From positions 62,001 through 126,000 of the IMG/VR virus record IMGVR_UViG_3300032401_001514: a stretch of DNA of 64,000 nt. One strand, 5' to 3'. The notes beneath the pieces were generated by a model, which worked only from the letters and a program-made list of their open reading frames with translations, did not search any database and had not been told where the DNA came from. The translations under genes and the position numbers were made by a program. The DNA comes from a virus. Shown here in pieces: positions 1 through 60,969 of the stretch (position 1 is its first letter; every line of letters starts with the position of its first letter).

Positions 1-872
1 TCGCCTTGTAGAGAATCAACCTCTGCTGGACGAAGATATTTTGAATCAAACTCAATGTATTTATTTGGATCAAGATCTAATTTTGCGAACGCCAGATCAA
101 CAAAGTCTCTAACGGAATATTGAGTCCCGGTTGAAACAACATAATCATCTGATTTTTCGGCGGTTGCGATCAAATATACTGCATTAGCCGTATCTTTTGC
201 GTGACCCCAGTCTCGTCTTGCGTCTAAATTACCAAGGTAAAGTTTATGCTGTAGACCCAGCTTTATTCTGGTAGCAGCGCGAGTGATTTTTCTGGTAACA
301 AATGTTTCCCCTCTTTTTGGACTTTCGTAATTAAACATAATGATATTTGAAGCAAATAAATTATATGATTCTCTATAGTTAACAGTTGCATAATAACCTG
401 CAACCTTAGCGACTCCATATGGGCTTCTTGGTCTAAATTTTGTTTCTTCGTTTTGCGGAGGAAGAGTTGAGCCAAACATTTCTGATGACGAACATTGAAC
501 AAATCTTGTATTTGGGCTGTATTTACGAATAGCTTCAAGGCATCTGATTACACCAGTTCCTGTGATATCCATTGTGTATTCGGGTATATCGAATGAAACA
601 CGGACATGAGATTGCGCCCCAGCATTAATAAAGATATCTGGTTTTATACTTGAAACAAAATTAATAATAGATGTAGCGTCAGATAAATCACCATATACTA
701 ATTCTAATTTGTTATCTATATGAGGATCTATATAGAGATGATCTATTCGTTCTGTGTTTAAAGTAGAGCTGCGCCTTTTAAGACCATATATTTTATAGTT
801 TTTTTCTAGAAATAACTCGGCTAAATAAGAACCTAGTTGGCCATTTATACCTGTGATACAAACTGTTTTCAT
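1..872 (-). CDS. gmd: GDP-mannose 4,6-dehydratase (3' end beyond window)
   Basis: Converts GDP-D-mannose to GDP-4-keto-6-deoxy-D-mannose, the branch point for fucose, colitose, perosamine and rhamnose. I translated 290 codons from the ATG at 872-870. The frame is open to the window edge, so about 50-80 C-terminal residues of a usual 340-370 are missing. Visible features are the Rossmann motif GINGQLG (8-14), the GMD-typical NTERIDHLY stretch (39-47), the catalytic SSSE (128-131), YGVAK (152-156) and [16 protein letters not shown], which is diagnostic of GMD rather than other extended SDRs. The start overlaps the upstream stop by 4 bases (ATGA). It is the last gene of the glycan operon that can be seen. 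Family call is secure; the sugar finally made depends on the DegT and SDR enzymes upstream. Confidence 0.95.
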
Positions 873-1123
873 GTTTTTCCGTACATTTTAGTTGAGCCTT
901 GTTTATATAGCTTTTGTAATTCACCTGTTTTTATAAGATGATTAATTTTCTCATCAATTTCTTGAATCAAATCATTTCTTTGTTGATTAGCTATATTTGT
1001 TATTTGGGTTGCTTTCGCCATCTCTTCATTAGATACGTCTTCTTTTCTTTTAATATCTTCTGCCATCCATATGCGTAAGTTCACCACGGTAAGCTTATCT
1101 ATTAAATTACCTATTGTTTCCAT
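869..1123 (-). CDS. small conserved protein of sugar clusters, function unknown
   Basis: An 84-residue soluble protein, predicted helical and rich in charged residues, starting [19 protein letters not shown]. The [13 protein letters not shown] segment resembles the start of DUF4254-type proteins found in capsule and phage sugar clusters; this is recalled by eye, not searched. It overlaps the SDR gene upstream by 13 bases and gmd downstream by 4 bases, so it is translated as part of the operon. No catalytic motif, signal peptide or membrane segment is seen. A role in nucleotide-sugar or acceptor handling is only suggested by the neighbours. Confidence 0.75.
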
Positions 1124-1908
1124 ATGTTTCCATTTTCTTTTATATCACCAATGGTATCAGATAATAAATTATCATAAGAATATTTCCATTCTACATCAGC
1201 CATAATTAATTTTTGTTTATCTTGCGCTTTATTGCTTTTTTCATTTACAAAATAATTAAAATCTAATTCATTTAATTTATAAAGATCTTTAATAAAATCT
1301 CCAACATGAAATAATCTACCAGCACCAACAACGCAATCATTATTTTTTTCTATACTCTTTGTAACTAAAAATTTAGTATGTATCATGTCTCGATAAAAAT
1401 CTAAATTTCCTACATTTATTTTTGTTTTATTAATAATTGAATTAAAAATTTTACCAAACAAAAAACATTCATTTCTATATACAGAATTAAAATAAAAAGG
1501 ATGTATAAGAACAACCTTATAATATGTATCATCTATCAATCTTCGTTCTTTTATTTTATTTAAAAGCAATAATTTTGATATGGCATATTCATTATTTATG
1601 TTAAAATAAGGATTGGAATTTAAAGATATATGCCCAGATAATTTGTTCCAAAGTTCACAGCTAGTATAGCATACTATTTTATTTGAATTTTTTAATAATG
1701 CCTCAATAATATTTAGCGTATAAATATAATTAGGCGTAATATAATCTATATTTGTTTCATAAATTCTTTGTTCAGCAAAGGTAATATAAACTGATTCCCA
1801 TATGTTATTTTTTAAATAATCAAAATCAATATTTCTTGAGGATATTTTCGTGAATCCTTCATTTGGAAAATATTTTGAAAGCTGAGAATTACCTATTACC
1901 AAATGCAT
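1111..1908 (-). CDS. divergent NAD-dependent epimerase/dehydratase-like protein (extended SDR)
   Basis: A 265-residue protein with the outline of an extended short-chain dehydrogenase. It has a short N-terminal strand with a degraded nucleotide motif (GNSQLSKYF, 6-14, lacking the usual GxxGxxG), a TSC segment at 82-84 where the catalytic Ser/Thr would be, and YAISK at 108-112 giving the YxxxK pair. The retained catalytic pair argues for an active fold; the weak glycine motif leaves cofactor binding open. It overlaps the methyltransferase gene upstream by 20 bases and the 84-residue gene downstream by 13 bases. The substrate is probably a GDP- or UDP-sugar, inferred from context. It could also be a reductase acting on the 4-keto sugar made by gmd. 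Confidence 0.7.
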   Translation of the reverse strand: MHLVIGNSQLSKYFPNEGFTKISSRNIDFDYLKNNIWESVYITFAEQRIYETNIDYITPNYIYTLNIIEALLKNSNKIVCYTSCELWNKLSGHISLNSNPYFNINNEYAISKLLLLNKIKERRLIDDTYYKVVLIHPFYFNSVYRNECFLFGKIFNSIINKTKINVGNLDFYRDMIHTKFLVTKSIEKNNDCVVGAGRLFHVGDFIKDLYKLNELDFNYFVNEKSNKAQDKQKLIMADVEWKYSYDNLLSDTIGDIKENGNIWKQ

Positions 1909-3127
1909 ATGAGCTATCTATAACCTCGAATTTAGGACATGGAACAATAAATTTCCCACCATTAGCCAAGTACTCTTTTTCTCTATCGCAAAATTCGTTA
2001 ATGAAATGCCATGGAAGAACTAATAAATAATCAGGTTTTGCTTTGTGCATATCTTCTTCTGAGTAAATTATGATGTTAGTACCCAAAGTTTTTAAACCAA
2101 ATTTATAAGGATTTCTTTCAGCTATACCATCTATTAAAGTATTATCTAATCCAAAATATTGTAATAATGTATTTCCTTTGGTAGATGCTCCATAAGCCCA
2201 TATTGTTTTTCCATTGCTTCTTTCTTGTTTTATAAAAGAAACAGTTTGTTCTTTTAATTGATTGATCTTATTATAAAAATCTAACCAAGTGTTTACCTCA
2301 TCTAATTTCAATGTTTTTTCATATTCTAATAATGATTTGATTCTAAAATTAGAAACGTCTCTATGAGATTGTGTGGCAAATTTTTTTAAATTAGCCACAT
2401 CTTTCATTATATAAATTCTAAAAGAACCGCCATTAATATCATTCAATTGACAATCAACGATTTTAAAATTATTTTTTTCTAATATAGATTTTAAATTGAA
2501 TAATGAGTAATAAAAAATATGTTCATGGCATATATTATCGAAAGCTAATTGTTCTAACATTAGCGGCGTATAACTCAATTGCATCACCCATAAACCATTA
2601 TCATCTAATATTTCATTGATATCTTTTATAAACTGTTCTGGATATTCAAGATCGTAAAACATTGCTATTGAAGTAATAATTTTAGCTTTTAAATTTCCAT
2701 ATTTGGTTAATTTAAATGTGGTGGCTTTAAAAAAATCTTGAATAATCAAATTCGCATGTTTTTCGGATTCAACCTTGTAAGTGTCGTCAGCTGGATCGAT
2801 GCCTATTCTAATCAAATTGGTAGGCACAAAACTAAGCAGCGTGCCATCGTTTGCAGCTATGTCTATCCATAAATCATCTTGTTGTAATTTATATACAGAA
2901 GTTATTGAATTAACAATTTGATTCAATTCATTTTTCATTGTTGTATTAATACCACTGCGGTACCAATATTTACCATACATTGAATCAAACGGAGCAATTT
3001 TATTTAATCGAATATTTCCATCATCAGTTAAGAATAAATTCATTTCTATTTTATCGCTTCGGGGTACATCTTCGTCCTTGATAAAATCAGAAACGTATAG
3101 TTCTCCCAAAGTAAATAGCTCTTTCAT
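1889..3127 (-). CDS. sugar C-methyltransferase-like SAM-dependent methyltransferase
   Basis: A 412-residue protein matching the layout of deoxysugar C-methyltransferases (TylC3/NovU type). A SAM-binding core starts around IDIAANDGT (88-96) with GIDPA (109-113). The family-typical HEH followed by FYYS lies at 201-208. The C-terminal domain contains WAYGASTKGNTLL (310-322), typical of the Methyltransf_14 region. The usual N-terminal zinc domain with paired cysteines is missing: the protein begins at the LGELYVSDFI segment that normally follows it. Such enzymes add a methyl group to a carbon next to a keto group of a nucleotide-linked sugar, which fits a 4-keto sugar from gmd. Family call good; substrate inferred. 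Confidence 0.82.
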   Translation of the reverse strand: MKELFTLGELYVSDFIKDEDVPRSDKIEMNLFLTDDGNIRLNKIAPFDSMYGKYWYRSGINTTMKNELNQIVNSITSVYKLQQDDLWIDIAANDGTLLSFVPTNLIRIGIDPADDTYKVESEKHANLIIQDFFKATTFKLTKYGNLKAKIITSIAMFYDLEYPEQFIKDINEILDDNGLWVMQLSYTPLMLEQLAFDNICHEHIFYYSLFNLKSILEKNNFKIVDCQLNDINGGSFRIYIMKDVANLKKFATQSHRDVSNFRIKSLLEYEKTLKLDEVNTWLDFYNKINQLKEQTVSFIKQERSNGKTIWAYGASTKGNTLLQYFGLDNTLIDGIAERNPYKFGLKTLGTNIIIYSEEDMHKAKPDYLLVLPWHFINEFCDREKEYLANGGKFIVPCPKFEVIDSSYAFGNR

Positions 3128-3140
3128 TATTAACCTAAGC

Positions 3141-4037
3141 TTAGAATTTGTCTAATGTTTCTTGGACAGCGCGCTCAAATCCACGATTCATTTGTTCTAA
3201 TGACATATTATCACAAACGAAGCTATTAACGGAACCATTAGCAATAACCGAACTTACTATGGTTTGGCCACAAAGCTCAACTCTTGGCACTGGTTTATTG
3301 TTCCAACAGCTAACGGCCACGGTAATGCCACTAGACACTCCAATAAACAAATCACAATAATTATGAATTAAAGCTGTTTGTCTTACTGTAAAATCAGAAC
3401 AAGAAACAACGCCTGAATCATCAATATATTTTACATAATCTATTTTGCTAGCAAAAATAAAATTACATTTTCCAAATTTATTTCGACATAATTGCATTAT
3501 ATTTTTGGTTACATCTTCGCTTAATTGAAAATTACCAGCTGATCTTAGTTGCGATTCGAACATAACAGTTTTTGTATGCGGTAAACTGGAACAAAAATCT
3601 TTTGCTTTATTTCGTTCTTCATCAGAAAATCCTAAGTATGGATGCCACTCCCAAGATGGATCTGCACCGTAAACCATTCTTGGTATGTTTGAATAATTTA
3701 CATTATCGAATATTTTATTAGGCAGCATGGCCCAAGGAGCTGGAAAATATCCATTATGCAAATCTTTCATAGACTCAAAAGCGTCCCTTTTGTCTAAACA
3801 AAGCTGTCCATTTGCATTCATTATTTCTCTAAAATCTACACGCGGCCAATCTCTTACCTCAGTAATAGCATCATTAAATTTCAACATATCTAAGTAAGTG
3901 TGTTTATCAGCAGAATGATTACAATACCATATAATCTCTTTACCAGGCCATAATATATCTTTATATTTCAAAACACAAGTACACAACCCAATATCTCCAT
4001 GTTGTCCATGAACGAAAATTCCAATTTTATCTGCCAT
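3141..4037 (-). CDS. GT9/heptosyltransferase-like GT-B protein (putative glycosyltransferase)
   Basis: A 298-residue protein. Its N-terminus (IGIFVHGQHGDIGLCTCVLKY, about 5-25) resembles the GDxL-type opening of ADP-heptose transferases. The C-terminal half has alternating strands and helices with a GVSSGIT turn, like the donor-binding loop of GT9 enzymes. No DxD motif is needed in this fold. It lies between the methyltransferase and another putative glycosyltransferase, 9 bases from its upstream neighbour, in one operon. Acceptor and donor cannot be read from the sequence. The family call is by fold pattern only and a search could move it. Confidence 0.55.
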   Translation of the reverse strand: MADKIGIFVHGQHGDIGLCTCVLKYKDILWPGKEIIWYCNHSADKHTYLDMLKFNDAITEVRDWPRVDFREIMNANGQLCLDKRDAFESMKDLHNGYFPAPWAMLPNKIFDNVNYSNIPRMVYGADPSWEWHPYLGFSDEERNKAKDFCSSLPHTKTVMFESQLRSAGNFQLSEDVTKNIMQLCRNKFGKCNFIFASKIDYVKYIDDSGVVSCSDFTVRQTALIHNYCDLFIGVSSGITVAVSCWNNKPVPRVELCGQTIVSSVIANGSVNSFVCDNMSLEQMNRGFERAVQETLDKF

Positions 4038-4046
4038 ATACTCTCC

Positions 4047-4847
4047 TTAAAATCCAGGGCAATCTAAAATAACATTTTTTTCTTGTGCATATTTTTTCAC
4101 AACTTCTAAAGCGCGCGGCGGAATATGCTCAGTAATTCCACCAATTAAAACATCATGATGCTTCTTACAATGAGCGCAGAAAAATGTATTCAATTTATTT
4201 GCTTCACGAAATGATAGGCCGGGCACTGGTTCATCATTTTCCACGTATGATGGAATAGGAACTCCGCCATCATTAAAATAACCATTAACTATTTGTCCTT
4301 GGTTATTATATTGAGGGTGACCATAATGAACAATTAAATCATGTGTAATATTTGGGTAAATTTCGTTGGCTAAAAACCCTTGATCATAAGTGTTATCTTT
4401 GCTAAATTTTTCTACCATTTCATTCATTTTTGAAAGAATATAATTTCTAACACCCCACATGCCACCCATTATTTTTTGACTATGATAACAATGGTCTCTT
4501 ATAATATGAAAATTCTTTTTGCCATCAAGCCATTGGTCTACACAAACTTTCTCTCTTGATGATACCCAAGAATCAGCGTCTCTAGATATCATAACGACAC
4601 CATACTCAGAGGCGGGCAAGAATCTCCATAACATAGCTTCGCTGCCACGATGAGTTGGCATAACTACAATTTCTACATGTTCGAATGTTCTAAGAAGTTT
4701 TTCTATACACGACGGAATAGTGTCATCAATATAAAATCTAGCAATCCAATCAGGATAAATATAAGGGATTAATAAACAATTTATAATTGCGTTAATTGTG
4801 TCTTTTGGTCTATTATTGTAAAGTGAGTAACTTATTATTTTTTTCAT
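4047..4847 (-). CDS. GT-A type glycosyltransferase-like protein
   Basis: A 266-residue protein with a conserved block that I associate with phage and bacterial glycan clusters: MLWRFLPASEYGVVMISRDADS (about 72-93), where RDADS supplies a DxD-like metal site, followed by a REK..VDQWL segment, IIRDHCYHS and a GGMWG turn. This arrangement suggests a GT-A nucleotide-sugar transferase. A CxxC with two adjacent histidines near the C-terminus (FCAHCKKHH) may bind zinc. It is followed after 10 bases by the GT9-like gene and preceded by an FkbM-type methyltransferase gene. Donor and acceptor are unknown. Confidence 0.62.
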   Translation of the reverse strand: MKKIISYSLYNNRPKDTINAIINCLLIPYIYPDWIARFYIDDTIPSCIEKLLRTFEHVEIVVMPTHRGSEAMLWRFLPASEYGVVMISRDADSWVSSREKVCVDQWLDGKKNFHIIRDHCYHSQKIMGGMWGVRNYILSKMNEMVEKFSKDNTYDQGFLANEIYPNITHDLIVHYGHPQYNNQGQIVNGYFNDGGVPIPSYVENDEPVPGLSFREANKLNTFFCAHCKKHHDVLIGGITEHIPPRALEVVKKYAQEKNVILDCPGF

Positions 4848-4857
4848 TAATAACCTC

Positions 4858-5487
4858 TTATAATACGTATGTATCTGCCATTTTCTTTAATGTATCTACT
4901 ATGTTATCTGGATATAATTTATCTCCACACAGTCTGTGTAATTTGTCCATATTAAAAACAGAGGCATCAACCCACCAATCTTCAAACGGAAGATTTGGTC
5001 CCATACCACAACCTAGTGGCACAAGCACATCTGAACATAATAATGAGTAACTATGCCCGCTTAAAATAGCTCTTTCTTCATCTTTAAGTTTATTTCCAAA
5101 TCTATAAGCGTCATGTTCTATAGTAATAACGCTAAATCTATAGTCATTCAATGGTAATATTTTTAATACTTCTGCGCTATTTTCGTCTATATCTATAGAT
5201 AAATAATCTATTCTTGATGGATATTTTTCTTTATTTAATATGGTTTTATAATCAATTTTTGTAGCATCATCATTTATAAAATGACAAGTTCTACTTTTAT
5301 AACCCTCGTTATGATCTAAACTTTTTTCTACACAAATCCCATGCCATTTTAACTCATCTTCAAAATAATATGAATTACTTGTAGAAATTGCACTAAAACT
5401 TCCAATGTCTAAATAATAACCATTACGTTTAAAATTTAATACATTAGATACAAACTCATCTTGCCACGCCTGTGAATGATATACCAT
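4858..5487 (-). CDS. FkbM-family SAM-dependent methyltransferase
   Basis: A 209-residue protein. SQAWQDEFV near the N-terminus followed by NGYYLDIGSFSA (22-33) and SNSYYFEDELKWHGICVEK matches the FkbM family layout, where DIGS is the SAM-binding motif I and CVEK ends motif II. LSIDIDENSAEVL corresponds to the family's conserved LKIDVEGxE region, here with an unusual DEN. FkbM enzymes O-methylate sugars and other hydroxyls and are frequent in glycan clusters, where they can cap or decorate a chain. It has an independent start 30 bases after the upstream gene. Confidence 0.8.
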   Translation of the reverse strand: MVYHSQAWQDEFVSNVLNFKRNGYYLDIGSFSAISTSNSYYFEDELKWHGICVEKSLDHNEGYKSRTCHFINDDATKIDYKTILNKEKYPSRIDYLSIDIDENSAEVLKILPLNDYRFSVITIEHDAYRFGNKLKDEERAILSGHSYSLLCSDVLVPLGCGMGPNLPFEDWWVDASVFNMDKLHRLCGDKLYPDNIVDTLKKMADTYVL

Positions 5488-5517
5488 TTATTTTCCTTTG
5501 TTGTTTATACTAGTTAA

Positions 5518-6294
5518 TTAATAAAAATATTTCAAAAACAAATCCATTCTTTTTTTGTGTCCATCAGCAAATACTGGATTGGCAGCATTCCATTGCGAGC
5601 CTGCCATATAATGATAAAACCCTTCGGCTATCCAGCCAGCACTTAAACCATGTGTTCTGCAAATGTCTAAGTCAGCTTTAAAATACTCAGCGAAAGGCCC
5701 TTTGCCTTCTAATGTAGCAAGAAAATAAGAAGTTTGATGATTAGCCATAAATTTAACTGAATTAGGATTTTTTTCGATAAATGTTTTAGTTTTTCCTCCG
5801 GTGTCCAATCCCGTATCTAAACCAAAATCTAATTCACGAACATTGTTTAAAAGTTTCATATTAACAATTGTAAAAGCTGGATAAAAATAATTAACGCCCT
5901 TGCCATTTAAAATCCTAAACTCGGTAGTACTTGCGGCAATGTTGCCAGCTATGATATCCGATATTGATACATCACATATAGGAAACACATCCGAGTGAAC
6001 AAGAACTATAATCTCACAATTATTATTTACAGCATAATTATGTACGGCCCAATTTAATGCTGATGCATAACACTCAGAGGGATTTTGAACAGTATGGATA
6101 TTTTGAGGTATTCTTACGCAGTTAATATTATTATAAGAAGCTATTTCATTAATGTTCTTTTCCATTTTAGAATCAAATGCATCGTTTAATAATACAAAAT
6201 CAAAATCTTCTTTCATATATTTTTTGAACTGTCTATGCATGATATCAAGAGGAAATTTATCATTTACAGCGAAAGAAAGAATAGATATTTTCAT
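5518..6294 (-). CDS. putative GT-A glycosyltransferase
   Basis: A 258-residue protein that opens with a hydrophobic strand (MKISILSFAV) and has IIVLVHSDVFPI (about 94-105), which sits where a GT2-like enzyme carries its DxD motif; only one of the two acidic residues is present. The C-terminal part contains HGLSAGWIAEGFYHYMAGS, reminiscent of acceptor-side segments in GT-A enzymes. The gene overlaps the reductase gene upstream by 4 bases. No signal or membrane segment. Assignment rests on fold pattern and on its position between nucleotide-sugar genes. Confidence 0.55.
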   Translation of the reverse strand: MKISILSFAVNDKFPLDIMHRQFKKYMKEDFDFVLLNDAFDSKMEKNINEIASYNNINCVRIPQNIHTVQNPSECYASALNWAVHNYAVNNNCEIIVLVHSDVFPICDVSISDIIAGNIAASTTEFRILNGKGVNYFYPAFTIVNMKLLNNVRELDFGLDTGLDTGGKTKTFIEKNPNSVKFMANHQTSYFLATLEGKGPFAEYFKADLDICRTHGLSAGWIAEGFYHYMAGSQWNAANPVFADGHKKRMDLFLKYFY

Positions 6295-7187
6295 AAATGC
6301 TCCATGTGATTAATAGTATCTATTAAACCAGATTCTATTTTTGTAAAAGAAAGGGTTGGCATTATGCCTTTCAAATAATAATTGCTTACGGTTTTTTTAA
6401 AGTTTCCATCTTGTTTGCTTGTGTCAAATTTAATTTCATTTTTAAATTGTGTTATTTTGCCAATGCATCTTGCTAAATCAGAGATGGTAATTTCCTCATC
6501 ACTACAACATATGATTGGTTTATCACCAGAATAATTCATAACTAAATGTTTAATTATTTTAGCTAAATCCATAGAATAAATAAATTGTCTCAAAGGCTTT
6601 CCTGTGCCATTAATTACGACATCTGTATTTGTTTTATTAGCTTCTTTGAATTTAGAAACCAAACTCGGTATCAATCTGCCAGATTTTATATTATCGTTCG
6701 CCCCATAAATATTACAAGGTATAATGCCAAAATATTTTCTATTATATTGCGCATTGTAATTTTGGCATTGTAACGCAAGCATTCTTTTTGAATAAGCATA
6801 TCCAGCAAAAGCTCCGGTTAAATTGCTTTCAAAAATCATAGATTCGTCCATTGGAAATTTTGAAGGCATCTCTGGAAACATATTTACCGACAAACAAAAC
6901 ATTCCATTTTGTATTCCGGCTAAATTTGAGGCCTCTAATACGTTTTCATTTATTCTAACATTATTCGAAAACGAAGACACTTTGTCAATATTATAAAAAC
7001 CAGGAACATATGAAGCCAAATGAATAATATAATCTGGACCTATAGTCCTCACCAAATCAATCGTTCGTTCTCTATTAGTTAGATCGCAGTCCTTTCTTTC
7101 AATAAAAACCCAATTATCTTCTTCTGAACACAAAGACTTTAAAGAACTGCCTACGCATCCGTTGCTGCCTGTAACAAGAATTTTCAT
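6291..7187 (-). CDS. GDP-L-fucose synthase / ColC-like SDR reductase
   Basis: A 298-residue extended SDR whose overall line-up follows GDP-fucose synthase: GSNGCVGSS (7-15), S100, YAYSK (130-134, the YxxxK pair), IPCNIYGANDN (156-166), then LIPSLVSKFKEA and GTGKPLRQFIYSMDLAK, all typical of that family. It would act on the 4-keto sugar made by gmd, or on the 3-deoxy product of the adjacent ColD-like enzyme. By eye the two acid/base residues that epimerise C3 and C5 in the E. coli enzyme (Cys109, His179) align with Asn102 and Arg171 here, so epimerisation may be changed or lost. It overlaps the dehydratase upstream by 4 bases. Possible products are GDP-fucose, GDP-colitose or an unepimerised 4-reduced sugar. 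Confidence 0.8.
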   Translation of the reverse strand: MKILVTGSNGCVGSSLKSLCSEEDNWVFIERKDCDLTNRERTIDLVRTIGPDYIIHLASYVPGFYNIDKVSSFSNNVRINENVLEASNLAGIQNGMFCLSVNMFPEMPSKFPMDESMIFESNLTGAFAGYAYSKRMLALQCQNYNAQYNRKYFGIIPCNIYGANDNIKSGRLIPSLVSKFKEANKTNTDVVINGTGKPLRQFIYSMDLAKIIKHLVMNYSGDKPIICCSDEEITISDLARCIGKITQFKNEIKFDTSKQDGNFKKTVSNYYLKGIMPTLSFTKIESGLIDTINHMEHL

Positions 7188-8368
7188 GGTTTATAACTCA
7201 ATAGTATATCGATTAATTCTTCAACTAAAAAGTCTGGCATCAAGTTACTTGATAGTCCAATAAACAAACCGTGAAAATGACATTGCTCAGCTCCTGGAAA
7301 ATTTAACGGATTTAAACTTGGATAAAGATCCTTAATAACTGGCTGTCTTATAATATTACCAGTAATAATTGGTCTATTTTCAACTCCGTTATTTGTTAGA
7401 TAAGATAAATAATTTGGTAAAGATACGCTTTTATCTAAAAACAAAACAATGCCAAACCATATAGCATCGGTGTCCTCGCTTGATTCAGCAAAAGAAAGAA
7501 AAGTATTTCTTGGGTCAGTCTCTATTCTATATTTAATATAATTGTAATTTATCTTTCTATTATTGTTTTTTTCTTGAAGTTTGTTTAGCTGACTAATGCC
7601 CATTGAGGCTTGTATTTCCATCGGTCTTACATTATATCCTAAATTAACAAATGTAAATCTAGGATCTAAATCAGGGTATTGTTTTTGTATCTCTTCTTTA
7701 TTTGTTAGGTTTCTTGACCACCCATGAGCACGAAGGCACTTCATTAACTCATAACTCTCATCATTATTACATACCACCATGCCTCCCTCCATAGTAGTTA
7801 AATGATGAGAATAATAAAATGAATACGTTCCAATATCTCCAAATGTTCCGAGATATTTAGTTTTGTACTTTGAGCCTAGAGATTCACAAGTATCTTCTAT
7901 TAAAAGTAAATTATAGCGATTAACAATATTCATTAACTTTTCCATGTTAGTAGAGTTTCCTAGAACATGAACAAGCATAATAGCTTTTGTTTTATTCGTA
8001 ATTTTATTTTCAAGATCTTCTAAATTTATATTCAATGTTTTTGAATCTACATCTACAAATATAGGTGTGAGATTTGATTGAATAATTGGGAATACACTAG
8101 TAGACCAGCATAAAGCCGGAACCAAAACTTCATCGCCAGGCATTAATCTATTAGCACATTTGTAATTAGAAAGAGTAGATAGTGCTATTAAATTAGCTGA
8201 TGATCCAGAATTTACCATCAGCGCATGTTTTGCTCCAATATATTCTGCAAATATTTTTTCGAATTCATTTACTTGCTCACCCATAGTAAAATTTTCAGTA
8301 AGCAAAGTCTTAACCATCTCTATAATATCATTAGAGTCATGAACATTTTGGCCTAATGGAAATTTCAT
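7184..8368 (-). CDS. ColD-like GDP-4-keto-6-deoxy-D-mannose 3-dehydratase (DegT/DnrJ fold)
   Basis: A 394-residue PLP-fold enzyme of the DegT/DnrJ/EryC1/StrS family. NSGSSANL (53-60) binds phosphate, and the LLIEDTCESLG segment carries the Asp that holds the PLP ring. The position where aminotransferases have the Schiff-base lysine reads SFYYSHHLTTMEGG: His188 replaces Lys. This is the hallmark of 3-dehydratases such as E. coli ColD, which also uses His188, and of the CDP-sugar enzyme E1. Length fits ColD (about 390) rather than E1 (about 430). Together with gmd it predicts GDP-4-keto-3,6-dideoxymannose, the colitose precursor. Overlaps both neighbours by 4 bases. An ordinary sugar aminotransferase is unlikely without the lysine. 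Confidence 0.85.
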   Translation of the reverse strand: MKFPLGQNVHDSNDIIEMVKTLLTENFTMGEQVNEFEKIFAEYIGAKHALMVNSGSSANLIALSTLSNYKCANRLMPGDEVLVPALCWSTSVFPIIQSNLTPIFVDVDSKTLNINLEDLENKITNKTKAIMLVHVLGNSTNMEKLMNIVNRYNLLLIEDTCESLGSKYKTKYLGTFGDIGTYSFYYSHHLTTMEGGMVVCNNDESYELMKCLRAHGWSRNLTNKEEIQKQYPDLDPRFTFVNLGYNVRPMEIQASMGISQLNKLQEKNNNRKINYNYIKYRIETDPRNTFLSFAESSEDTDAIWFGIVLFLDKSVSLPNYLSYLTNNGVENRPIITGNIIRQPVIKDLYPSLNPLNFPGAEQCHFHGLFIGLSSNLMPDFLVEELIDILLSYKP

Positions 8369-9432
8369 AATTGGCTCTCAATGCTAGTAAGAATCTGTTT
8401 CCAACTTATATAAATTGATTCTTTTCTTAACACATTATAGTTGGCCATATTATTGCTAATTTCTTTTAAATTTACTGTGTTTAATAGGTGTTGCAAATGA
8501 GACTGGGAATCAAAATATTGAACATGTTTCATGTTTTCTGTATCATAAAAATCACAAGTATCTATCCACATATCTAAAATTTTTGGATTACGTAGACTGT
8601 TCGGATTATCTAAATCATCAGGCTCTTTAACTTTTTCAATTTTATAAAAAGTCAAGTCAGAAAACATTTTATTTTGACAGATAAGTTCTTTGGCATATTG
8701 TTTTGAAGGCATAAACAGCGGAACATTTGCTGTATATTGTTCGAATATAGACATACTGCCATTATGATAAGGCAGATGAATTATACCTTTGTAACTATAA
8801 AGATCTTTCCAATCGTATCTCCAAGAAGCATTTCTAACTGTGCCCAGCCCAACACATAAATTACCGGGCACTGTTATATCTGAGCGATCATGTATAACAT
8901 ATTTATTTTTTGTTCCTGTGTATTTGGCATTTGTGTACTCGCATAAATTTGGAATATGCATTCCTAAAATGCCATTCAAATAATGCGAATAATACTGATC
9001 TCCTTTGTTATTACAAACATAATATAGTTTACCTTCATTATGCTTTAGTTTTAAAAAATCATTTAATCTGTCTCTAATTGCTGGAGTAAAAGTATTTGGA
9101 TGGTCATATCTTACACAATTAACTATTATGATTGGCTTATTCCACCTTTCATAAAGCATAGCAAATTCTACTGGATAACACGCAATAAACCCGTCATATT
9201 TGCTAAGCTCGTCTTTATTCTGTTCATAAAACATATCACAGACTTCTTGGGTACAAACCCCTGAACAAGTTAACTGTGTGCCATTGCTAAGCATAATTTG
9301 GGACTTTGGTTTGTTCATAACCCAATGATGGCCAGATAAAGACCAATCATCAACTTCATGTCCTAAATTTTTGAAAATGTGAGCTATGTCAGAGATGACC
9401 GATACATGCTGATCTATATTGAAAAACTTCAT
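8365..9432 (-). CDS. putative GT-B glycosyltransferase
   Basis: A 355-residue protein, not clearly recognised. The middle has an SDITVPGNLCVGLG segment followed by IIHLPYHNGSMSIFEQYTAN and VPLFMPSKQYAK. That order, a hydrophobic strand then an S/E-containing loop and a P-x-F-x-P strand, is like the donor-binding C-terminal half of GT-B enzymes, and similar text occurs in phage sugar clusters. The N-terminal half, with CxxxVCTQEVC, has a Rossmann-like pattern. It overlaps the ColD-like gene by 4 bases and the methyltransferase gene by 4 bases. Function is inferred from pattern and context only. Confidence 0.5.
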   Translation of the reverse strand: MKFFNIDQHVSVISDIAHIFKNLGHEVDDWSLSGHHWVMNKPKSQIMLSNGTQLTCSGVCTQEVCDMFYEQNKDELSKYDGFIACYPVEFAMLYERWNKPIIIVNCVRYDHPNTFTPAIRDRLNDFLKLKHNEGKLYYVCNNKGDQYYSHYLNGILGMHIPNLCEYTNAKYTGTKNKYVIHDRSDITVPGNLCVGLGTVRNASWRYDWKDLYSYKGIIHLPYHNGSMSIFEQYTANVPLFMPSKQYAKELICQNKMFSDLTFYKIEKVKEPDDLDNPNSLRNPKILDMWIDTCDFYDTENMKHVQYFDSQSHLQHLLNTVNLKEISNNMANYNVLRKESIYISWKQILTSIESQL

Positions 9433-10088
9433 AACGCTTCTTTTAATGTAATATGTAGTACGCTTTCTTTATCAGTAAAATCATGCCACGTTATTTTTTC
9501 TACCTTTGGGTTTGATAGAATAAATTTTTCTATTTTATCAATAGCATATACATTATGATATAAATCTTCTTCTTCCCAATAGTTAATCTGATCTTCGCCA
9601 GCAGCCGTCCATGGCTTTTGTTTTAATGATTCTGGTAGTTCGTCATCATATAATGGAATAGAGCCAGGCTTTAAAAACCAAACTATAATTACTTCTTTTT
9701 TGCCGATTCTAATAAATTCATTTATTGCATTTTCATAATATGACAAATGCTCAACAACTTCCCTACAAAATACACACTCATATGCATTGTCCCCAATTGG
9801 CAAAGTGCAATCTAAATCAGCTTCAACCATATGAATGCCCTGTGAGGCATTAAAATCTATAAAGTATTTACAGCTGTCAGCCCCAGTATACTTTATATCA
9901 TAATTGTCATTATACTTATATCCATAATATTCTGTTGCGAAACCGCATCCGCAATCTAAAATGCTTTTATAGTTCTTTTTTATAACATGGTTTCTGCAAT
10001 AAACTTTATTTGGGTTATTAAAATCTTTAACCCACCCAAAAAAAGTTTCAAGATTATTTTTTACATTTTTATTCCACCAAGTTGTCAT
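9429..10088 (-). CDS. class I SAM-dependent methyltransferase
   Basis: A 219-residue protein. ILDCGCGFATEYYG (43-56) is motif I of class I methyltransferases, GADSC is the position-II acidic loop, and FCREVVEHLSYYENAINEF matches the motif IV region of the Methyltransf_11/25 group with a VVEHL signature. The acceptor cannot be deduced. Its place between a putative glycosyltransferase and the GT11 gene, with 4-base overlaps on both sides, suggests methylation of a sugar in the same glycan. Confidence 0.8.
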   Translation of the reverse strand: MTTWWNKNVKNNLETFFGWVKDFNNPNKVYCRNHVIKKNYKSILDCGCGFATEYYGYKYNDNYDIKYTGADSCKYFIDFNASQGIHMVEADLDCTLPIGDNAYECVFCREVVEHLSYYENAINEFIRIGKKEVIIVWFLKPGSIPLYDDELPESLKQKPWTAAGEDQINYWEEEDLYHNVYAIDKIEKFILSNPKVEKITWHDFTDKESVLHITLKEAL

Positions 10089-10816
10089 ATTTTATTCCAC
10101 GTAATAGGAGTTAAATTTTTTGTATTATGTTGTAATTTTGGCCCAAACCAATTTTTTGGCGCAATTATTTTTTTATTAGTGTTTTTGTTTAAATACGCCG
10201 CCCACCACGAATAACTACTATTAGCTATAATATTATTTTCGCACGACGACATTAAAGACATATCAATATGCGGCTCATTGCCTTCTATAAAAACAAATTT
10301 ATCGCCCTTGAATTTTTCTTTGCACCAATTTATATCATCAGAAAACACAAAATAACAATCAGATTTGATAATATTCATTGCTTCTTCATAATAACTTGTA
10401 TTTGCTAAATCTGTATAATAAGAATTGCCAAGTTTAGTATAATCACCTCTTCTTATATGCATAGAGGTAACGCCTGTATTTTCAGGAAAACATTGTTTAT
10501 ATTCAAACAATGTTTTTATTTCTTTTTCATATTCTTTAAAATATAATTCTGATTGATAATACCCAGATAAATTCAAATTTGGTTGATATGGAATTGTAGC
10601 ATAATGAAAAAATGGCTCGACATATGTTTTAGAATATTGTATGGTTTCTTTTGTGAATTTGTCATCGGGGATATTAAAATGCTCTCTGTCTTTCCAATTA
10701 TCAGGAAAAATATAATCATCATTATTTTTTAAAGCCGTAGCAATTGTCGCTGCCGCCTGAAAAAGACAATTTCCAGTCCTGCCACAATTTCCAAAATCTA
10801 AATATGTAACAACCAT
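10085..10816 (-). CDS. GT11 alpha-1,2-fucosyltransferase (or colitosyltransferase)
   Basis: A 243-residue enzyme with all GT11 landmarks: a GxGNxLFQ-type N-terminus (GRTGNCLFQAAA, 12-23), the GDP-binding HIRRGDY motif (120-126), FVFSDDINWCKEKF, and the C-terminal SYSWWAAYLN block. GT11 enzymes transfer L-fucose from GDP-fucose to the 2-position of galactose, producing the H-antigen disaccharide. The E. coli O55 member WbgN naturally uses GDP-colitose, which matters because a ColD-like enzyme is encoded nearby. Length is near the bacterial norm of 270-300. Start and the upstream stop share one base (TAATG), so translation is coupled to the GT2-GT6 gene. Confidence 0.9.
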   Translation of the reverse strand: MVVTYLDFGNCGRTGNCLFQAAATIATALKNNDDYIFPDNWKDREHFNIPDDKFTKETIQYSKTYVEPFFHYATIPYQPNLNLSGYYQSELYFKEYEKEIKTLFEYKQCFPENTGVTSMHIRRGDYTKLGNSYYTDLANTSYYEEAMNIIKSDCYFVFSDDINWCKEKFKGDKFVFIEGNEPHIDMSLMSSCENNIIANSSYSWWAAYLNKNTNKKIIAPKNWFGPKLQHNTKNLTPITWNKI

Positions 10817-13602
10817 TATGTTCTTATTTTTTCATGATGTTTTTCTAATAACAATATTATTGGATCGAAATTATCGCTTTTCCATAAATGTTTGAATTTT
10901 TCAATGTTTTGCGGGTAATGATAGCTTGGGCTTAATGATAAAGGAGCGTGATCTAAGAAATATCTATTTATAGCCGTTTCGTCATGCCATAATGGAATTA
11001 TACCGTTTTTAACATCTTGTTCTATTTTAGATGCGCACCACTCGGAAAGCTCTAAATATTTATCCTTTCTGCCACCGCTAAACCCGCCTCCATAATAATA
11101 AGTATATTTATCAGACGGTGTATATAAACAAGAGCTTGTATTTGTTTCAAATGTGCCGCCGCCATGATAATAACCACAATGTCTTACACCAACTAAATCA
11201 CCAAGAGTCTCACCAGAAACTCTATTTATAAACAGGCAGTCAGCATCAATATAGTACAAATAATCCATGTCATTAAATATTTCTTTATTTTCGCTGAAAT
11301 ATTTAAACCTATTCATACTAGCAAAAGGAAATGGAACATGCTCTATATGAACTTGTTTAACACTTCTTGTTGTTAATATATCTTGAGTTTCGTCAGAAAA
11401 TACAAAATATGACACCTCTGAGTCGGCATTATTGAAAAAATATCTATCGGCTGACGAAATCAACGGGGCAATAAAAGATTGATATTTTGATGTGCCTATA
11501 ATTATCAATCCAATTTTATGTTTAATTTCTTGTTTTTTATTTTCAACTGAGGTTTTGTTATATTTAGTTTTTCTTCTTATTAAACCATCCAAGCTAGCTT
11601 GTAACTGTTTATTAACTTTATGATCGTTTATTGGATTTTGAAGATTATAAGTATATAAAGCTTCGCTTATAAATTTCGAATGAATTCCAGACATTTCTAA
11701 CATTGGATACATAATGGCCAGATCCCATGTCATAGCGAAAAACTTTCCATCATTATTAATTAAGTCATTTTTATTTATCTTTTTAAATAACCAGGCATAG
11801 AAAGTTCTCAAATGTGAAGAACACCATGTAAAAGATCTATATGTATTTGATTGTGTAATTTTATCAGGAATTTGTTGTGATACGCCGAGCGCTCCATCTG
11901 GATAATTTTGATATTGCCCATAAGTTAACCATATGTCTTTGTTTTTATAAACATTATTTAAATAATTCAAGACATTTTCGTTTGATAACCAATCATCTCC
12001 ATCCAATGTTAAAATTATTTCATCATCAGCGCAACTATGTATTGCATTATACAAATTTTCTAAAGCGCCAAGACGATTTATATTTTTAACAATAATTGTT
12101 TTTATATTGCCTTTATATTTGTCTATAATTTCACGGGCTTTAATAAACGTTTTATCAGATGAACAATCGTCAATATATATAATTCTATAGTTTACGTAAT
12201 TTTGTTGTATTGCAGAACGTAAATTATTTTCCACCCATTGCTCATTATTATAACTAGGAATAACAATAACAAACTTTTTATCTTTACCAACAGATAAATT
12301 AATATTATCACTTAACGGCACGTTACTTAATGTATTTAATATAATCGGATTCTGTATTATATTATCTGTATTATAATTAAAATTAACTGGTTGATAAAAA
12401 AGTGCTGCATTTATTTTTGCTGTCGGTACTGCTGCTACCGCCGTTGCTGATGCGTTTTTTATACCATTTATTAATTTAATACGCTCAACAAATAATTCGC
12501 CAACTGAATTTGACCCTCTACTTATTTTTATTTTATAACTAGCTGCTGGACTTCCTGATTTAAGTTTAAAAAATAATTCAGATTTTTTTTGATGTGCTAA
12601 CAATGTTATAACACTTTTTATATTATTATCATCATCAATAATACTAACTTCTAATTTCCCATTCCCGTTTATTTTATTAGCAGTGATAACAACTACATAT
12701 TCAAAATCAGGCTGTATAGTTGTAATTGGTATGCAAAAAGAAGAGCCTCTTGGCATAATGATACCATTTGCCACATTAGATAATGATCCAACAACAGACC
12801 CGAAGGCGTTTATGTTTAAACCGCTTTGTGATGAATCGTACATAATAGATGATACAAATATATTGTTTGTTATTACTTGTGAAAATGTCTTATTTTTAAT
12901 TAATTCATTTGGCGACTTGTTAGAATTAATATCATAATTTGTTGTAATCGTTGGCGGAGACTCCATATTACGATACATTGGCTCAGAATGTATTTTATCT
13001 AAACTCGACAATTTAATATCAAGTATTTCACATGGTATCATAAATTTTATAAATCCGTCTTTATTAACAATTACATTAGGAGGCTGGGTAATTATAGATT
13101 CAATATTAGATGATTTTAAACTGCCTCCCTCTGATGCGAATAATTTGTTTTTTACTATCCTTACATTTTTACAAGGCTCACATTGTGCTATAATATTTCG
13201 CCAACTCATTGATTTAACCACTTCTTCATCTTGCATTATTTCTATATCCTCATTAGTTTCAATAATTATTCCAGATATTAATATCTTTCCAAATGTTCCA
13301 GGCTGTCGCATAATTTTAATTTTATCATATGATGTTGGAACTTGTATTGTTTCTTCATGCATTGAAGAAAACTTTGTATTAATATGAGATGATTCAGTTG
13401 CTATTATTATAGTGCCATTGCCAGATAAACGCCGTCCTTTAAAAGTAATACATTTTGCTATATTATTAAAATCCGAAAAATCAAAACTAACACTACCTGA
13501 TGGTTCTATTTCAATGGATCCATCAGATATATATCTACAAGAGCGTATAGAAGATACGTATTGTTTTAAATCATTGGCTGCTATTTCATATTTTTTATTC
13601 AT
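10816..13602 (-). CDS. three-part protein: unknown beta-rich N-terminus, GT2 and ABO-family GT6 glycosyltransferases
   Basis: A 928-residue protein. Residues 1 to about 430 are beta-strand-like with no recognised motif. A GT2 domain (about 435-680) begins KFVIVIPSYNN and carries DGDDW at 534-538 as its metal site. A GT6 domain (about 694-928) has IIIGTSKYQSF, the IDADCLF motif with D786 and D788 as DxD, YYYGGGFSGG at the donor-specificity loop, and WHDE at 872-875 followed by INRYFLDHAPLSLSPSY. GT6 includes the human A and B blood-group transferases, which add GalNAc or Gal to a fucosylated H acceptor. Most bacterial GT6 enzymes have NxN, so DxD is notable. The GT11 gene follows directly. A Gly triplet at the specificity loop is compatible with a bulky N-acetylated donor (inference). 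Confidence 0.88.
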   Translation of the reverse strand: MNKKYEIAANDLKQYVSSIRSCRYISDGSIEIEPSGSVSFDFSDFNNIAKCITFKGRRLSGNGTIIIATESSHINTKFSSMHEETIQVPTSYDKIKIMRQPGTFGKILISGIIIETNEDIEIMQDEEVVKSMSWRNIIAQCEPCKNVRIVKNKLFASEGGSLKSSNIESIITQPPNVIVNKDGFIKFMIPCEILDIKLSSLDKIHSEPMYRNMESPPTITTNYDINSNKSPNELIKNKTFSQVITNNIFVSSIMYDSSQSGLNINAFGSVVGSLSNVANGIIMPRGSSFCIPITTIQPDFEYVVVITANKINGNGKLEVSIIDDDNNIKSVITLLAHQKKSELFFKLKSGSPAASYKIKISRGSNSVGELFVERIKLINGIKNASATAVAAVPTAKINAALFYQPVNFNYNTDNIIQNPIILNTLSNVPLSDNINLSVGKDKKFVIVIPSYNNEQWVENNLRSAIQQNYVNYRIIYIDDCSSDKTFIKAREIIDKYKGNIKTIIVKNINRLGALENLYNAIHSCADDEIILTLDGDDWLSNENVLNYLNNVYKNKDIWLTYGQYQNYPDGALGVSQQIPDKITQSNTYRSFTWCSSHLRTFYAWLFKKINKNDLINNDGKFFAMTWDLAIMYPMLEMSGIHSKFISEALYTYNLQNPINDHKVNKQLQASLDGLIRRKTKYNKTSVENKKQEIKHKIGLIIIGTSKYQSFIAPLISSADRYFFNNADSEVSYFVFSDETQDILTTRSVKQVHIEHVPFPFASMNRFKYFSENKEIFNDMDYLYYIDADCLFINRVSGETLGDLVGVRHCGYYHGGGTFETNTSSCLYTPSDKYTYYYGGGFSGGRKDKYLELSEWCASKIEQDVKNGIIPLWHDETAINRYFLDHAPLSLSPSYHYPQNIEKFKHLWKSDNFDPIILLLEKHHEKIRT

Positions 13603-14348
13603 TCATCTTTGTATGGAATATATATTGATTTCTGTTTAGTCATGTAAAGCCTTGAATTTTCATAAAATTTTGGCAAATTTTCCTTATGATGCTTATTTTT
13701 AAACTCTCTGTACTCCCCTATATCATTTTCGCCTTCGCCAATATGCTTTCCCATCTCTTTTATGTATCCTAGTTGATGCCCTAATACCCTGGCGCGCATG
13801 CCAAAATCTGCGTCCTCATGTGCGTAGGTTTTATATTCAGTATTAAAGAACCCCAGCATCTTATGTAAACTCTTTGGGAAAACCATGCAGGCTGTCCCTA
13901 GATTGCCCTGTGGCTTTCTTTGGAATTCCTTGCCGCCCTCGGACACCAACCCATACGCAGAGCCCTCCATATTGACTCCTATCATCGCGTATTTGGGATT
14001 TGCTTTAAGAATAGCTATACATTCGTCAAGCCATCCATCCGGCACCAGAATATCATTATCAATCGTTGCGTACCAAGAAGTATCTAAATTATCAGCCAAT
14101 AATAATGCCTGGTTCCTACCAATAGCTATTCCTTTATTTTCATTATTATATTGGCATACAATTTTGCCACCATCATATTTATTAACTAATTCGGATAAAT
14201 ATTGTTTGGTATCATCGGTAGAACCATTATCAACAATAGCCAGGTTATAAGGTTGTTTTGTATTTATTAATATGTTATTTATTGTTTGTTTGGTAAGCTC
14301 TAATCTGTTATATGTTACCATCATTAATGTAGCAATATCTTCTTTCAT
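13599..14348 (-). CDS. GT2 family glycosyltransferase
   Basis: A 249-residue GT-A enzyme. MVTYNRLELTK at the N-terminus, IVDNGSTDDTKQYL, IGRNQALLLADN, the ATIDNDI metal site (DxD) and a C-terminal YAHEDADFGMRARVLG block are the classic order for inverting GT2 enzymes. There are no membrane segments, so it is cytoplasmic and probably uses a nucleotide sugar rather than acting as a synthase. It overlaps the GT2-GT6 gene downstream and the gene upstream by 4 bases each. Donor and acceptor unknown. Confidence 0.88.
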   Translation of the reverse strand: MKEDIATLMMVTYNRLELTKQTINNILINTKQPYNLAIVDNGSTDDTKQYLSELVNKYDGGKIVCQYNNENKGIAIGRNQALLLADNLDTSWYATIDNDILVPDGWLDECIAILKANPKYAMIGVNMEGSAYGLVSEGGKEFQRKPQGNLGTACMVFPKSLHKMLGFFNTEYKTYAHEDADFGMRARVLGHQLGYIKEMGKHIGEGENDIGEYREFKNKHHKENLPKFYENSRLYMTKQKSIYIPYKDE

Positions 14349-52860: not shown

Positions 52861-53532
52861 GTGACCATGAAAAACTCATTGCTATCAATACTCACTCTTG
52901 TTACCGTAAGTTGTGGCGGGGCAGATTCAACCCAACTTGGCAATTCATTTAACGATGGAAGCGGAGGCGAGGCTGATTCCGGCCAAGCTGCTGGGGGCTC
53001 AACTACTGTTGGTACTGGGGGCTCTACCGGAGGCTCCGTTTCTATCGGAGGCTCCGTTTCTACCGGAGGCTCTGTTTCTACCGGAGGTACAAACGTTGGA
53101 GGAATTGGAACGGGAGGCTCAACAAACGTTGAAACTGGAGGGACTACCGGAAATGGAGGTAGCGGGCCTTGTGTTCCCAAGACATGTGTTACGCTAAGTG
53201 TTGAGAAGGGCTGGCCTGTCTGCGGGGTGATTTCTGATGGATGCTCAAATTACATTGATTGCAGTGGCTGTTCCGATCCTATGGAAACATGCGGCGGAGC
53301 AATGCCTGTAGAAAACCCGCCTCGTTCAGCAAAATTTGAAGATGGCATGGGCGTTTCGAATAAATGTGGAGGTGGTTGCATAAATCTATTTCAACAAGGA
53401 ACTTGCATTAGAACATTAATAGTTTGCACCAACTCAGTAGTTCCTGTTAATACCACTTGCCAAAATATAGATTCACTTCAGAGCCATTCTGGATTCGAAA
53501 AGTTTTCTGGATTCGGCTGGTGCTGCTTTTGA
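52861..53532 (+). CDS. Gly-rich, Cys-rich secreted lipoprotein (moron-like)
   Basis: A 223-residue protein with a signal peptide (MKNSLLSILTLVTVSCGG) whose cysteine at residue 20 could be a lipidation site, although the residue three before it is Thr rather than Leu. A linker of TGGSVS-type repeats follows (residues about 45-95), then a cysteine-rich domain with about 14 cysteines, including CVPKTC and DGCSNYIDCSGC. Similar linker plus CxPxxC designs are frequent in Myxococcota surface lipoproteins. Start is GTG at 52861, or ATG at 52867. It has its own promoter and opposite orientation, so it may be expressed from the prophage or early in infection to alter the cell surface. Its stop lies against the fibre gene's stop with no gap. 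Confidence 0.78.
   Translation: MTMKNSLLSILTLVTVSCGGADSTQLGNSFNDGSGGEADSGQAAGGSTTVGTGGSTGGSVSIGGSVSTGGSVSTGGTNVGGIGTGGSTNVETGGTTGNGGSGPCVPKTCVTLSVEKGWPVCGVISDGCSNYIDCSGCSDPMETCGGAMPVENPPRSAKFEDGMGVSNKCGGGCINLFQQGTCIRTLIVCTNSVVPVNTTCQNIDSLQSHSGFEKFSGFGWCCF
53026..53079 (+). repeat. three tandem 18-base repeats encoding TGGSVS
   Basis: Units start at 53026, 53044 and 53062. They differ at only two positions (ATC for ACC in the second, TCT for TCC in the third). They encode a flexible Gly-Ser linker in the lipoprotein and are likely to vary in number by slippage. Confidence 0.85.
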
Positions 53533-58925: not shown

Positions 58926-59288
58926 TTATTTGTCGGTTAATATATCTTTATCATTATCCACTATGCCAGCCGCTTCTTCTTTCTTTTTAATATACCCGTT
59001 TATAATTTTATATACATGAGCTGATAATAAACCGAGGGTCATACCAAAACACACTCTTGGCCAAAATGTTTGAAAATCTGTAGGCCACGTATAATTTTTC
59101 ATCAAAGCAGCCATGATTCCGCCTGAGCCGATTGGACCCAAAGGCAATAAAATTTCTTTATAAACACGACTTTTTGCCATTTTCTTGAAATATAAAGAAA
59201 TCACTTTGTTCTGAATGAAAACTAATACGACAACAACGAAGCAAAAAACTGCGTTTGATAAATTTAAAATTTGGTCCAAGATGTCCAT
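58926..59288 (-). CDS. small membrane protein, possible holin
   Basis: A 120-residue protein with an N-terminal membrane segment (AVFCFVVVVLVFIQNKVISLYF, about 13-34), a weaker one (KEILLPLGPIGSGGIMAALM, about 44-63) and a third (FWPRVCFGMTLGLLSAHVYKII, about 75-96), ending in a charged tail. AGGAG sits four bases before the ATG. Small three-span proteins in the late region are often holins, but no lysin gene is visible next to it, so this is a possibility only. It lies at the edge of the strand-switching patch. Confidence 0.55.
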   Translation of the reverse strand: MDILDQILNLSNAVFCFVVVVLVFIQNKVISLYFKKMAKSRVYKEILLPLGPIGSGGIMAALMKNYTWPTDFQTFWPRVCFGMTLGLLSAHVYKIINGYIKKKEEAAGIVDNDKDILTDK

Positions 59289-59368
59289 GATGCTCCTAAA
59301 AATAGTTAGCGCTATTTAAATGTAGAATTATGCGGGAGATTATACTATGAATATAGCAGAATAGTAAT

Positions 59369-60926: not shown

Positions 60927-60969
60927 ATTTTTAATATCGAAAAAGTAGCTGATATATGCTAGGTCAGTT

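What the first reader, a model, noticed from the sequence alone, without database searches (positions are those of the whole stretch)
7184..8368. His188 in place of the PLP lysine: ColD-type 3-dehydratase in a phage
The DegT-fold enzyme reads SFYYSHHLTT where aminotransferases have lysine. ColD uses His188 at this point and the numbering matches here. With gmd this predicts GDP-4-keto-3,6-dideoxymannose and suggests a colitose-type sugar rather than fucose.
Basis: partly seen in the sequence, partly recalled or inferred. Interest (0 to 1): 0.68.

Follow-up and report, generated by a model that had tools for sequence, protein, structure and literature searches.

The report
Phage deoxysugar enzyme pair, probably not colitose
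A jumbo-type phage carries a sugar-deoxygenating enzyme built like the bacterial enzyme ColD, but the reductase next to it has lost the residue needed to make colitose, so the phage probably makes a different, mirror-series 3,6-dideoxy sugar, alongside fucose.

Summary
In detail: window 7184-8368 (minus strand) encodes an intact 394-aa DegT-fold protein with S187-H188-H189. H188 falls on ColD His188, and true aminotransferases have Lys in that column. ColD is the nearest solved structure by sequence (E 7.5e-82) and by fold (TM 0.91), ahead of E1/RfbH and GDP-perosamine synthase. The E1-type Fe-S cysteines are absent. A complete gmd lies in the same cluster, partly outside the window. A ColD-type PMP 3-dehydratase is therefore well supported, though untested.

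"Colitose rather than fucose" is not supported. An fcl homologue sits beside gmd. The reductase overlapping the dehydratase belongs to the GDP-fucose-synthase family but has Asn in place of the epimerase base Cys109, and of His179, in all three phages found to carry the cassette. E. coli ColC keeps Cys109. The protein also lies outside the characterised ColD clade (AU p = 0.018), in a mostly SAR11 clade whose partners usually lack Cys109.

Best reading: GDP-4-keto-6-deoxymannose is 3-deoxygenated, then reduced at C4 without C5 epimerisation, giving a GDP-3,6-dideoxy-D-hexose beside GDP-L-fucose. Deposited cyanophages (S-CAM7, ACG-2014f) already carry gmd-fcl-His188 enzyme-GT11 clusters, so such an enzyme in a phage is not new.

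The parts
7184..8368 (-). DEH: ColD-type PMP-dependent NDP-4-keto-6-deoxysugar 3-dehydratase, 394 aa
   Evidence: PF01041 E 3.8e-83; ColD best PDB sequence hit; AF2 model pLDDT 95, best fold hits ColD, TM 0.91
7805..7807 (-). codon of His188, in place of the PLP lysine
6291..7187 (-). RED: GDP-fucose-synthase-family SDR, 298 aa, overlaps DEH by 4 bases; Ser100/Tyr130/Lys134 kept, Asn102 (for Cys109) and Asn164 (for His179): predicted C4-reductase without epimerase
6882..6884 (-). codon of RED Asn102 (GMER Cys109 position)
   Evidence: position computed from the ORF start
6696..6698 (-). codon of RED Asn164 (GMER His179 position)
   Evidence: position computed from the ORF start
1..872 (-). [quoted passage not shown] runs off the window, complete at record 61874-62872
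   Evidence: TIGR01472 425 bits against cut-off 415
1889..3127 (-). sugar C-methyltransferase (TylC3/TcaB9 type); same cassette, not in all phages that carry DEH-RED
   Evidence: PF08484; 4rv9 D-mycarose 3-C-methyltransferase E 7e-37
1111..1908 (-). short SDR-like protein of the same cassette, function unclear
   Evidence: weak PF01370; conserved in G001
869..1123 (-). 84-aa DUF4254 protein of the cassette
   Evidence: PF14063; conserved in G001
5518..6294 (-). 258-aa protein, overlaps RED by 4 bases, conserved next to RED in three phages; candidate glycosyltransferase (inference)
8365..9432 (-). 355-aa protein, overlaps DEH by 4 bases, conserved next to DEH in three phages; function unknown
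9429..10088 (-). methyltransferase of the operon, replaced by different genes at this place in G001 and G002
   Evidence: PF08241
10085..10816 (-). GT11 (alpha-1,2-fucosyltransferase family)
   Evidence: PF01531 E 1.5e-23
10816..13602 (-). GT2 + GT6 (blood-group transferase family) fusion
   Evidence: PF00535, PF03414
13599..14348 (-). GT2 glycosyltransferase, start of the conserved cassette
   Evidence: PF00535

Best explanation
DEH is a ColD-type, PMP-dependent 3-dehydratase. The Gmd encoded in the same cluster supplies GDP-4-keto-6-deoxy-D-mannose. PMP forms a Schiff base at C4; His188, which cannot hold PLP as an internal aldimine, takes the PMP proton so that the C3 hydroxyl leaves; the enamine hydrolyses to GDP-4-keto-3,6-dideoxy-D-mannose, and glutamate restores PMP. 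The translationally coupled RED then reduces C4 without epimerising C5, because its Cys109 base is gone, giving a GDP-3,6-dideoxy-D-hexose (D-arabino, i.e. tyvelose-like, or the C4 epimer). A separate Fcl takes the same Gmd product to GDP-L-fucose for the GT11. Both sugars are added to a surface glycan by the glycosyltransferases of the cassette. Shown: sequence, alignment, residues, gene linkage, conservation in three phages, predicted folds. Inferred: the catalytic activities, GDP specificity, hexose rather than heptose, C4 configuration, and the acceptor.
For: DEH: ColD first by phmmer (7.5e-82, E1 2e-67, perosamine synthase 1e-42) and by fold (TM 0.91). His in the K/H column, W88, D159, E162 kept. 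The Fe-S cysteine loop of E1-type phage homologues (L011, L012, L097) is absent, and no Fer2 or ferredoxin-reductase domain is found in the three phage records. gmd is in the cluster in all three phages. DEH and RED overlap by 4 bases and stay adjacent in three phages whose flanking genes, where examined, mostly differ. RED groups with human GMER at 100% SH-aLRT, away from ColC, keeps the S/Y/K reductase triad, and has N/N at the epimerase dyad in 3 of 3 phages. Precedent: MlghC (Y/R) and DdahC (T/H), GMER homologues without the Cys, are C4-reductases devoid of epimerase activity (PMC7949155). About 10 of 12 partners in the ColD clade keep Cys109, while 26 immediate-neighbour SDRs in DEH's own clade have His there. 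Fcl of G000 keeps C109/H179, and Fcl of G001 and G002 keep Cys109.
Against: No biochemistry. Substrate nucleotide rests on linkage to gmd; an RmlB-like 4,6-dehydratase is also in the record. Campylobacter ColD relatives act on GDP-heptoses (PMC10440746), so His188 does not fix the sugar. RED epimerase loss is inferred from two residues. Fcl could supply C5 epimerisation in trans. Three SAR11 members of DEH's clade (L059, L060, L082) do have Cys-containing ColC-like genes nearby.
Confidence: 0.6

Rival explanations
1. One reading: Gmd, DEH and RED (or Fcl acting on the DEH product) make GDP-L-colitose.
For: gmd present; ColD-like DEH; GT11 is a family that fits fucose or colitose transfer (family knowledge); ColC itself has a non-His residue at position 179, so only Cys109 argues against RED, and Fcl has that Cys.
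Against: RED has Asn at Cys109 in three of three phages; DEH plus the ColD clade is rejected as one clade (p-AU 0.018); RED is not in the ColC clade.
Confidence: 0.2
2. The DEH product is C-methylated by the cassette's TylC3-type methyltransferase before or after reduction, giving a branched 3,6-dideoxy sugar.
For: Methyltransferase in the same cassette in G000 and G001 at 72%; methyltransferase, DEH and gmd homologues lie together in SAR11 loci L037, L039, L053, L069, L072, L091.
Against: G002 has DEH-RED but no such methyltransferase, so the methyltransferase is not required and may act on another 4-keto sugar.
Confidence: 0.12
3. E1- or SpnQ-like use: the substrate is a CDP- or dTDP-4-keto-6-deoxyglucose made by the RmlB-like protein (record 59099-60079).
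For: RmlB-like protein present (TIGR01181 E 6e-98, below cut-off); close homologue L071 has an RmlB-like gene about 8 kb away.
Against: No Fe-S cysteines, no electron-transfer partner, gmd in all three phages.
Confidence: 0.07
4. DEH is an aminotransferase or a dead paralogue.
For: DegT fold; Pfam and PHROGs call it an aminotransferase.
Against: Lys absent at 188; for E1 a His-to-Lys change was needed for transamination (PMC8987622); strong purifying constraint.
Confidence: 0.03

Closest known systems
ColD (WbdK), GDP-4-keto-6-deoxy-D-mannose 3-dehydratase, E. coli (2GMS, 3B8X)
   Same: fold, His188, S187, W88/D159/E162, no Fe-S cluster, gmd linkage
   Different: 38% identity; lies in a separate, uncharacterised clade; partner reductase lacks the ColC cysteine
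E1/RfbH (DdhC), CDP-4-keto-6-deoxyglucose 3-dehydrase
   Same: fold and catalytic His
   Different: needs four Fe-S cysteines and E3; neither seen here
GDP-L-fucose synthase (GMER; human FX 4B8W, E. coli WcaG)
   Same: RED fold (TM 0.95), S/Y/K triad, tree position beside human GMER
   Different: RED has Asn at Cys109 and His179: predicted reductase only
Campylobacter C4-reductases MlghC and DdahC, and the HS:5/HS:11 GDP-3,6-dideoxy-heptose pathway
   Same: GMER-family reductases without the Cys; ColD relative followed by a C4-reductase
   Different: heptoses, with separate epimerases; RED is only about 22-25% identical in the fold match
Cyanophage clusters S-CAM7 and ACG-2014f (gmd, fcl, DegT with GHH, GT11)
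   Same: same gene set in a phage; one copy is already annotated as a 3-dehydrase
   Different: about 35% identity; their reductase keeps Cys109, so they are better candidates for a colitose-type sugar

Membership tests
ColD-type 3-dehydratase (by mechanism) | His in place of the PLP lysine | tested here: met
   H188 column
ColD-type 3-dehydratase (by mechanism) | no [2Fe-2S] cysteines, no electron-transfer partner | tested here: met
   (records may be fragments)
ColD-type 3-dehydratase (by mechanism) | glutamate-dependent C3 deoxygenation, no transamination | not testable with these tools
   needs an assay
ColD orthologue proper (colitose pathway) | groups with characterised ColD | tested here: not met
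   separate clade; one-clade AU p 0.018
Colitose pathway | gmd in the cluster | tested here: met
Colitose pathway | ColC: GMER-family reductase with Cys109 for C5 epimerisation | tested here: not met
   RED has Asn; not in the ColC clade. Fcl has the Cys but pairs with gmd
E1/RfbH | four Fe-S cysteines | tested here: not met
GDP-L-fucose synthase (RED) | Cys109 base | tested here: not met
GDP-L-fucose synthase (Fcl, record 60930-61877) | S107/C109/Y136/K140/H179 | tested here: met

The most novel reading that the evidence does not exclude
A glycan cassette exchanged between jumbo phages makes a GDP-linked 3,6-dideoxy-D-hexose (a GDP-tyvelose type or its C4 epimer, C-methylated in some phages) by pairing an uncharacterised ColD sister clade with a GDP-fucose synthase that lost its epimerase residues. 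Many SAR11 genomes run a parallel version with a different, His-for-Cys reductase.
Probability: 0.35. Interest if true: 0.6.

Novelty: new variant of a known kind. Interest (0 to 1): 0.42.

Why it matters
3,6-Dideoxyhexoses are strong surface-antigen determinants. I found no report of a phage-made one in the open-access papers searched, and GDP routes to the D series are, in what I read, known only for heptoses made in vitro. The case gives a two-residue, directly testable prediction that separates colitose from a D-series sugar, and points to a large uncharacterised dehydratase clade in SAR11. It also corrects a tempting over-reading: His188 identifies the chemistry, not the sugar.

Tried and rejected
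Rejected: aminotransferase (Lys absent); E1-type (no cysteines, no ferredoxin domains); colitose as the default product (RED Asn109); bacterial contamination (tail sheath and baseplate genes in the same record, and the cassette in two further large viral contigs). His179 was dropped as a criterion because ColC and many Fcl proteins lack it. NTP-transferase genes occur in G001 and G002 but not in G000, so GDP-mannose supply is unresolved.

Full report
Observation. The gene is on the minus strand, 8368 to 7184, 394 aa, intact. S187-H188-H189 are encoded at 7810-7802. ColD is the best solved-structure match (2gms, E 7.5e-82), then E1/RfbH (2e-67), then GDP-perosamine synthase (1e-42). In an alignment of about 110 homologues the column is His in all ColD-like and E1-like proteins and Lys in all aminotransferase-like ones; W88, D159 and E162 are kept. 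The AlphaFold model (pLDDT 95.2, pTM 0.93) matches ColD first (TM 0.91), E1 next, perosamine synthase after that. The Fe-S loop seen in the E1-type phage homologues L011, L012 and L097 (WWGRxCYC...) is replaced by LRAHGWSRN as in ColD. No Fer2 or NAD_binding_1 domain was found in this record or in two related phage records, all possibly fragments. According to the review PMC8987622, ColD uses the His as catalytic acid and base, hydrolyses the enamine and regenerates PMP with glutamate, while E1 and SpnQ use Fe-S electron transfer. By sequence this protein belongs to the ColD way of working.

Surroundings. The window is record 62001-126000 of a 129,628-base virus record. Tail sheath and baseplate families are found in it. 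gmd starts in the window (872 downwards) and is complete at record 61874-62872; it passes the NCBI equivalog cut-off. Next to it is an Fcl-like protein (record 60930-61877) with S107, C109, Y136, K140 and H179 all kept. Genes from 14348 down to 5518 overlap or abut by a few bases, including DEH with RED by 4 bases, which suggests one translationally coupled operon. It holds GT2, GT2-GT6, GT11, methyltransferases, DEH and RED.

The partner reductase. RED (6291-7187) is closest to human GDP-L-fucose synthase by sequence (2e-56), by fold (TM 0.95) and in a tree (100% SH-aLRT). It keeps Ser100, Tyr130 and Lys134, the reductase triad. Cys109 and His179, the epimerase base and acid of GDP-fucose synthase (PMC7949155), are Asn102 and Asn164. 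E. coli O111 ColC, fetched beside ColD, keeps the Cys and lacks the His, so Cys109 is the informative position. The same paper reports that MlghC and DdahC, GMER homologues with Tyr or Thr at that position, have no epimerase activity. RED is therefore predicted to be a C4-reductase only.

Conservation. RED found a 428,320-base viral contig (G001, L102), and the 355-aa neighbour found a 251,895-base one (G002, L106). G001 carries the cassette in the same order from GT2-GT6 to gmd and Fcl, with two genes inverted and one replaced, at 60-76% identity for most genes (GT11 47-48%, Fcl 40%), while most genes examined outside it have no homologue in our record. G002 carries GT2, GT2-GT6, GT11, the 355-aa gene, DEH (79%), RED (73%) and the 258-aa gene, with gmd and Fcl about 8 kb away, but no C-methyltransferase. 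All three REDs have Asn at both positions and all three DEHs have the HH motif. Amino-acid-changing differences are few (DEH pN 0.16 against pS 0.73; RED 0.17 against 0.69; synonymous sites are near saturation, so ratios are rough). The Asn substitutions are thus a stable trait, not decay.

Phylogeny. Among 80 genome loci and phage records, P0001 falls in a 54-member clade (SH-aLRT 98), mostly SAR11 with Planctomycetota and one Bdellovibrionaceae (L015, 52% identity), separate from a 12-member clade with E. coli ColD. Joining the phage enzymes with the ColD clade costs 27 log units, p-AU 0.018. In the ColD clade about 10 of 12 partner reductases keep Cys109. In the phage enzyme's clade, 26 immediate downstream SDRs read S-[ST]-x-H-V-[YF], His at that position, while three SAR11 loci have a Cys-containing ColC-like gene. 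Two different reductase types without the Cys therefore accompany this dehydratase clade, which argues that its usual product is not C5-epimerised. A His could still act as a base, so this is suggestive only.

What it most likely makes. Gmd gives GDP-4-keto-6-deoxymannose; DEH removes the C3 hydroxyl; RED reduces C4 without touching C5: a GDP-3,6-dideoxy-D-hexose, with C4 configuration unknown. Fcl makes GDP-L-fucose in parallel, fitting the GT11. The substrate could be a GDP-heptose, since dehydratases 62-67% identical to ColD act on heptoses in Campylobacter (PMC10440746). The cassette's C-methyltransferase, whose relatives also sit with DEH and gmd homologues in six SAR11 loci, might act on the same ketone, but G002 does without it.

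Known comparison. ColD-type enzymes in phages are not new: S-CAM7 has gmd, fcl, an annotated putative CDP-4-keto-6-deoxy-D-glucose-3-dehydrase and GT11 in a row, and ACG-2014f has the same order; both have a His at 188 without Fe-S cysteines and a Cys-containing reductase. Cyanophage LPS-type gene sets are discussed in PMC9602691. What differs here is the Cys-less partner, the separate clade, and a cassette kept across three large phages.

Verdict. Observation confirmed. Mechanism class supported at about 0.9, GDP substrate at about 0.75, non-colitose product at about 0.7; the combined best reading at 0.6.

Noticed in passing
window 10816-13602 and 10085-10816: GT2-GT6 fusion followed by GT11: a blood-group-like pair (GT6 is the ABO/alpha-Gal transferase family), also present in G001 and G002.
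   Followed up: partly
record G000:C1:57732-59135 (L004:17732-19135), outside the window: Tubulin/FtsZ-family protein with a weak PhuZ match; together with the related contigs it suggests a jumbo-type phage and that this record is a fragment.
   Followed up: partly
window 1-14348 against L102/L104 and L106: A glycan cassette of about 14 genes shared between phage contigs whose flanking genes mostly differ, with a two-gene inversion: looks like exchange between large phages.
   Followed up: partly
SAR11 loci such as L022, L024, L029, L077: gmd, His188 dehydratase and an SDR with an SSSHVY-type motif in a row: an uncharacterised deoxysugar pathway in SAR11.
   Followed up: partly
L037, L039, L053, L069, L072, L091: C-methyltransferase, His188 dehydratase and gmd lie together in SAR11.
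   Followed up: no
L011, L012, L097, L098:15484-16785: E1-type dehydratases with Fe-S cysteines (PAHH motif) in viral contigs and in cyanophage RN05-S.
   Followed up: no
window 869-1123: 84-aa DUF4254 protein, conserved in G001; a 128-aa protein that looks similar by eye precedes the C-methyltransferase in SAR11 locus L091.
   Followed up: no
window 52861-53532 (+) and record 9112-9549 (+): Gly/Ser-rich lipoprotein-like ORFs (VTVSCGG..., VLSCASE... then Gly-Gly repeats), on the strand opposite to the neighbouring genes in the first case.
   Followed up: no
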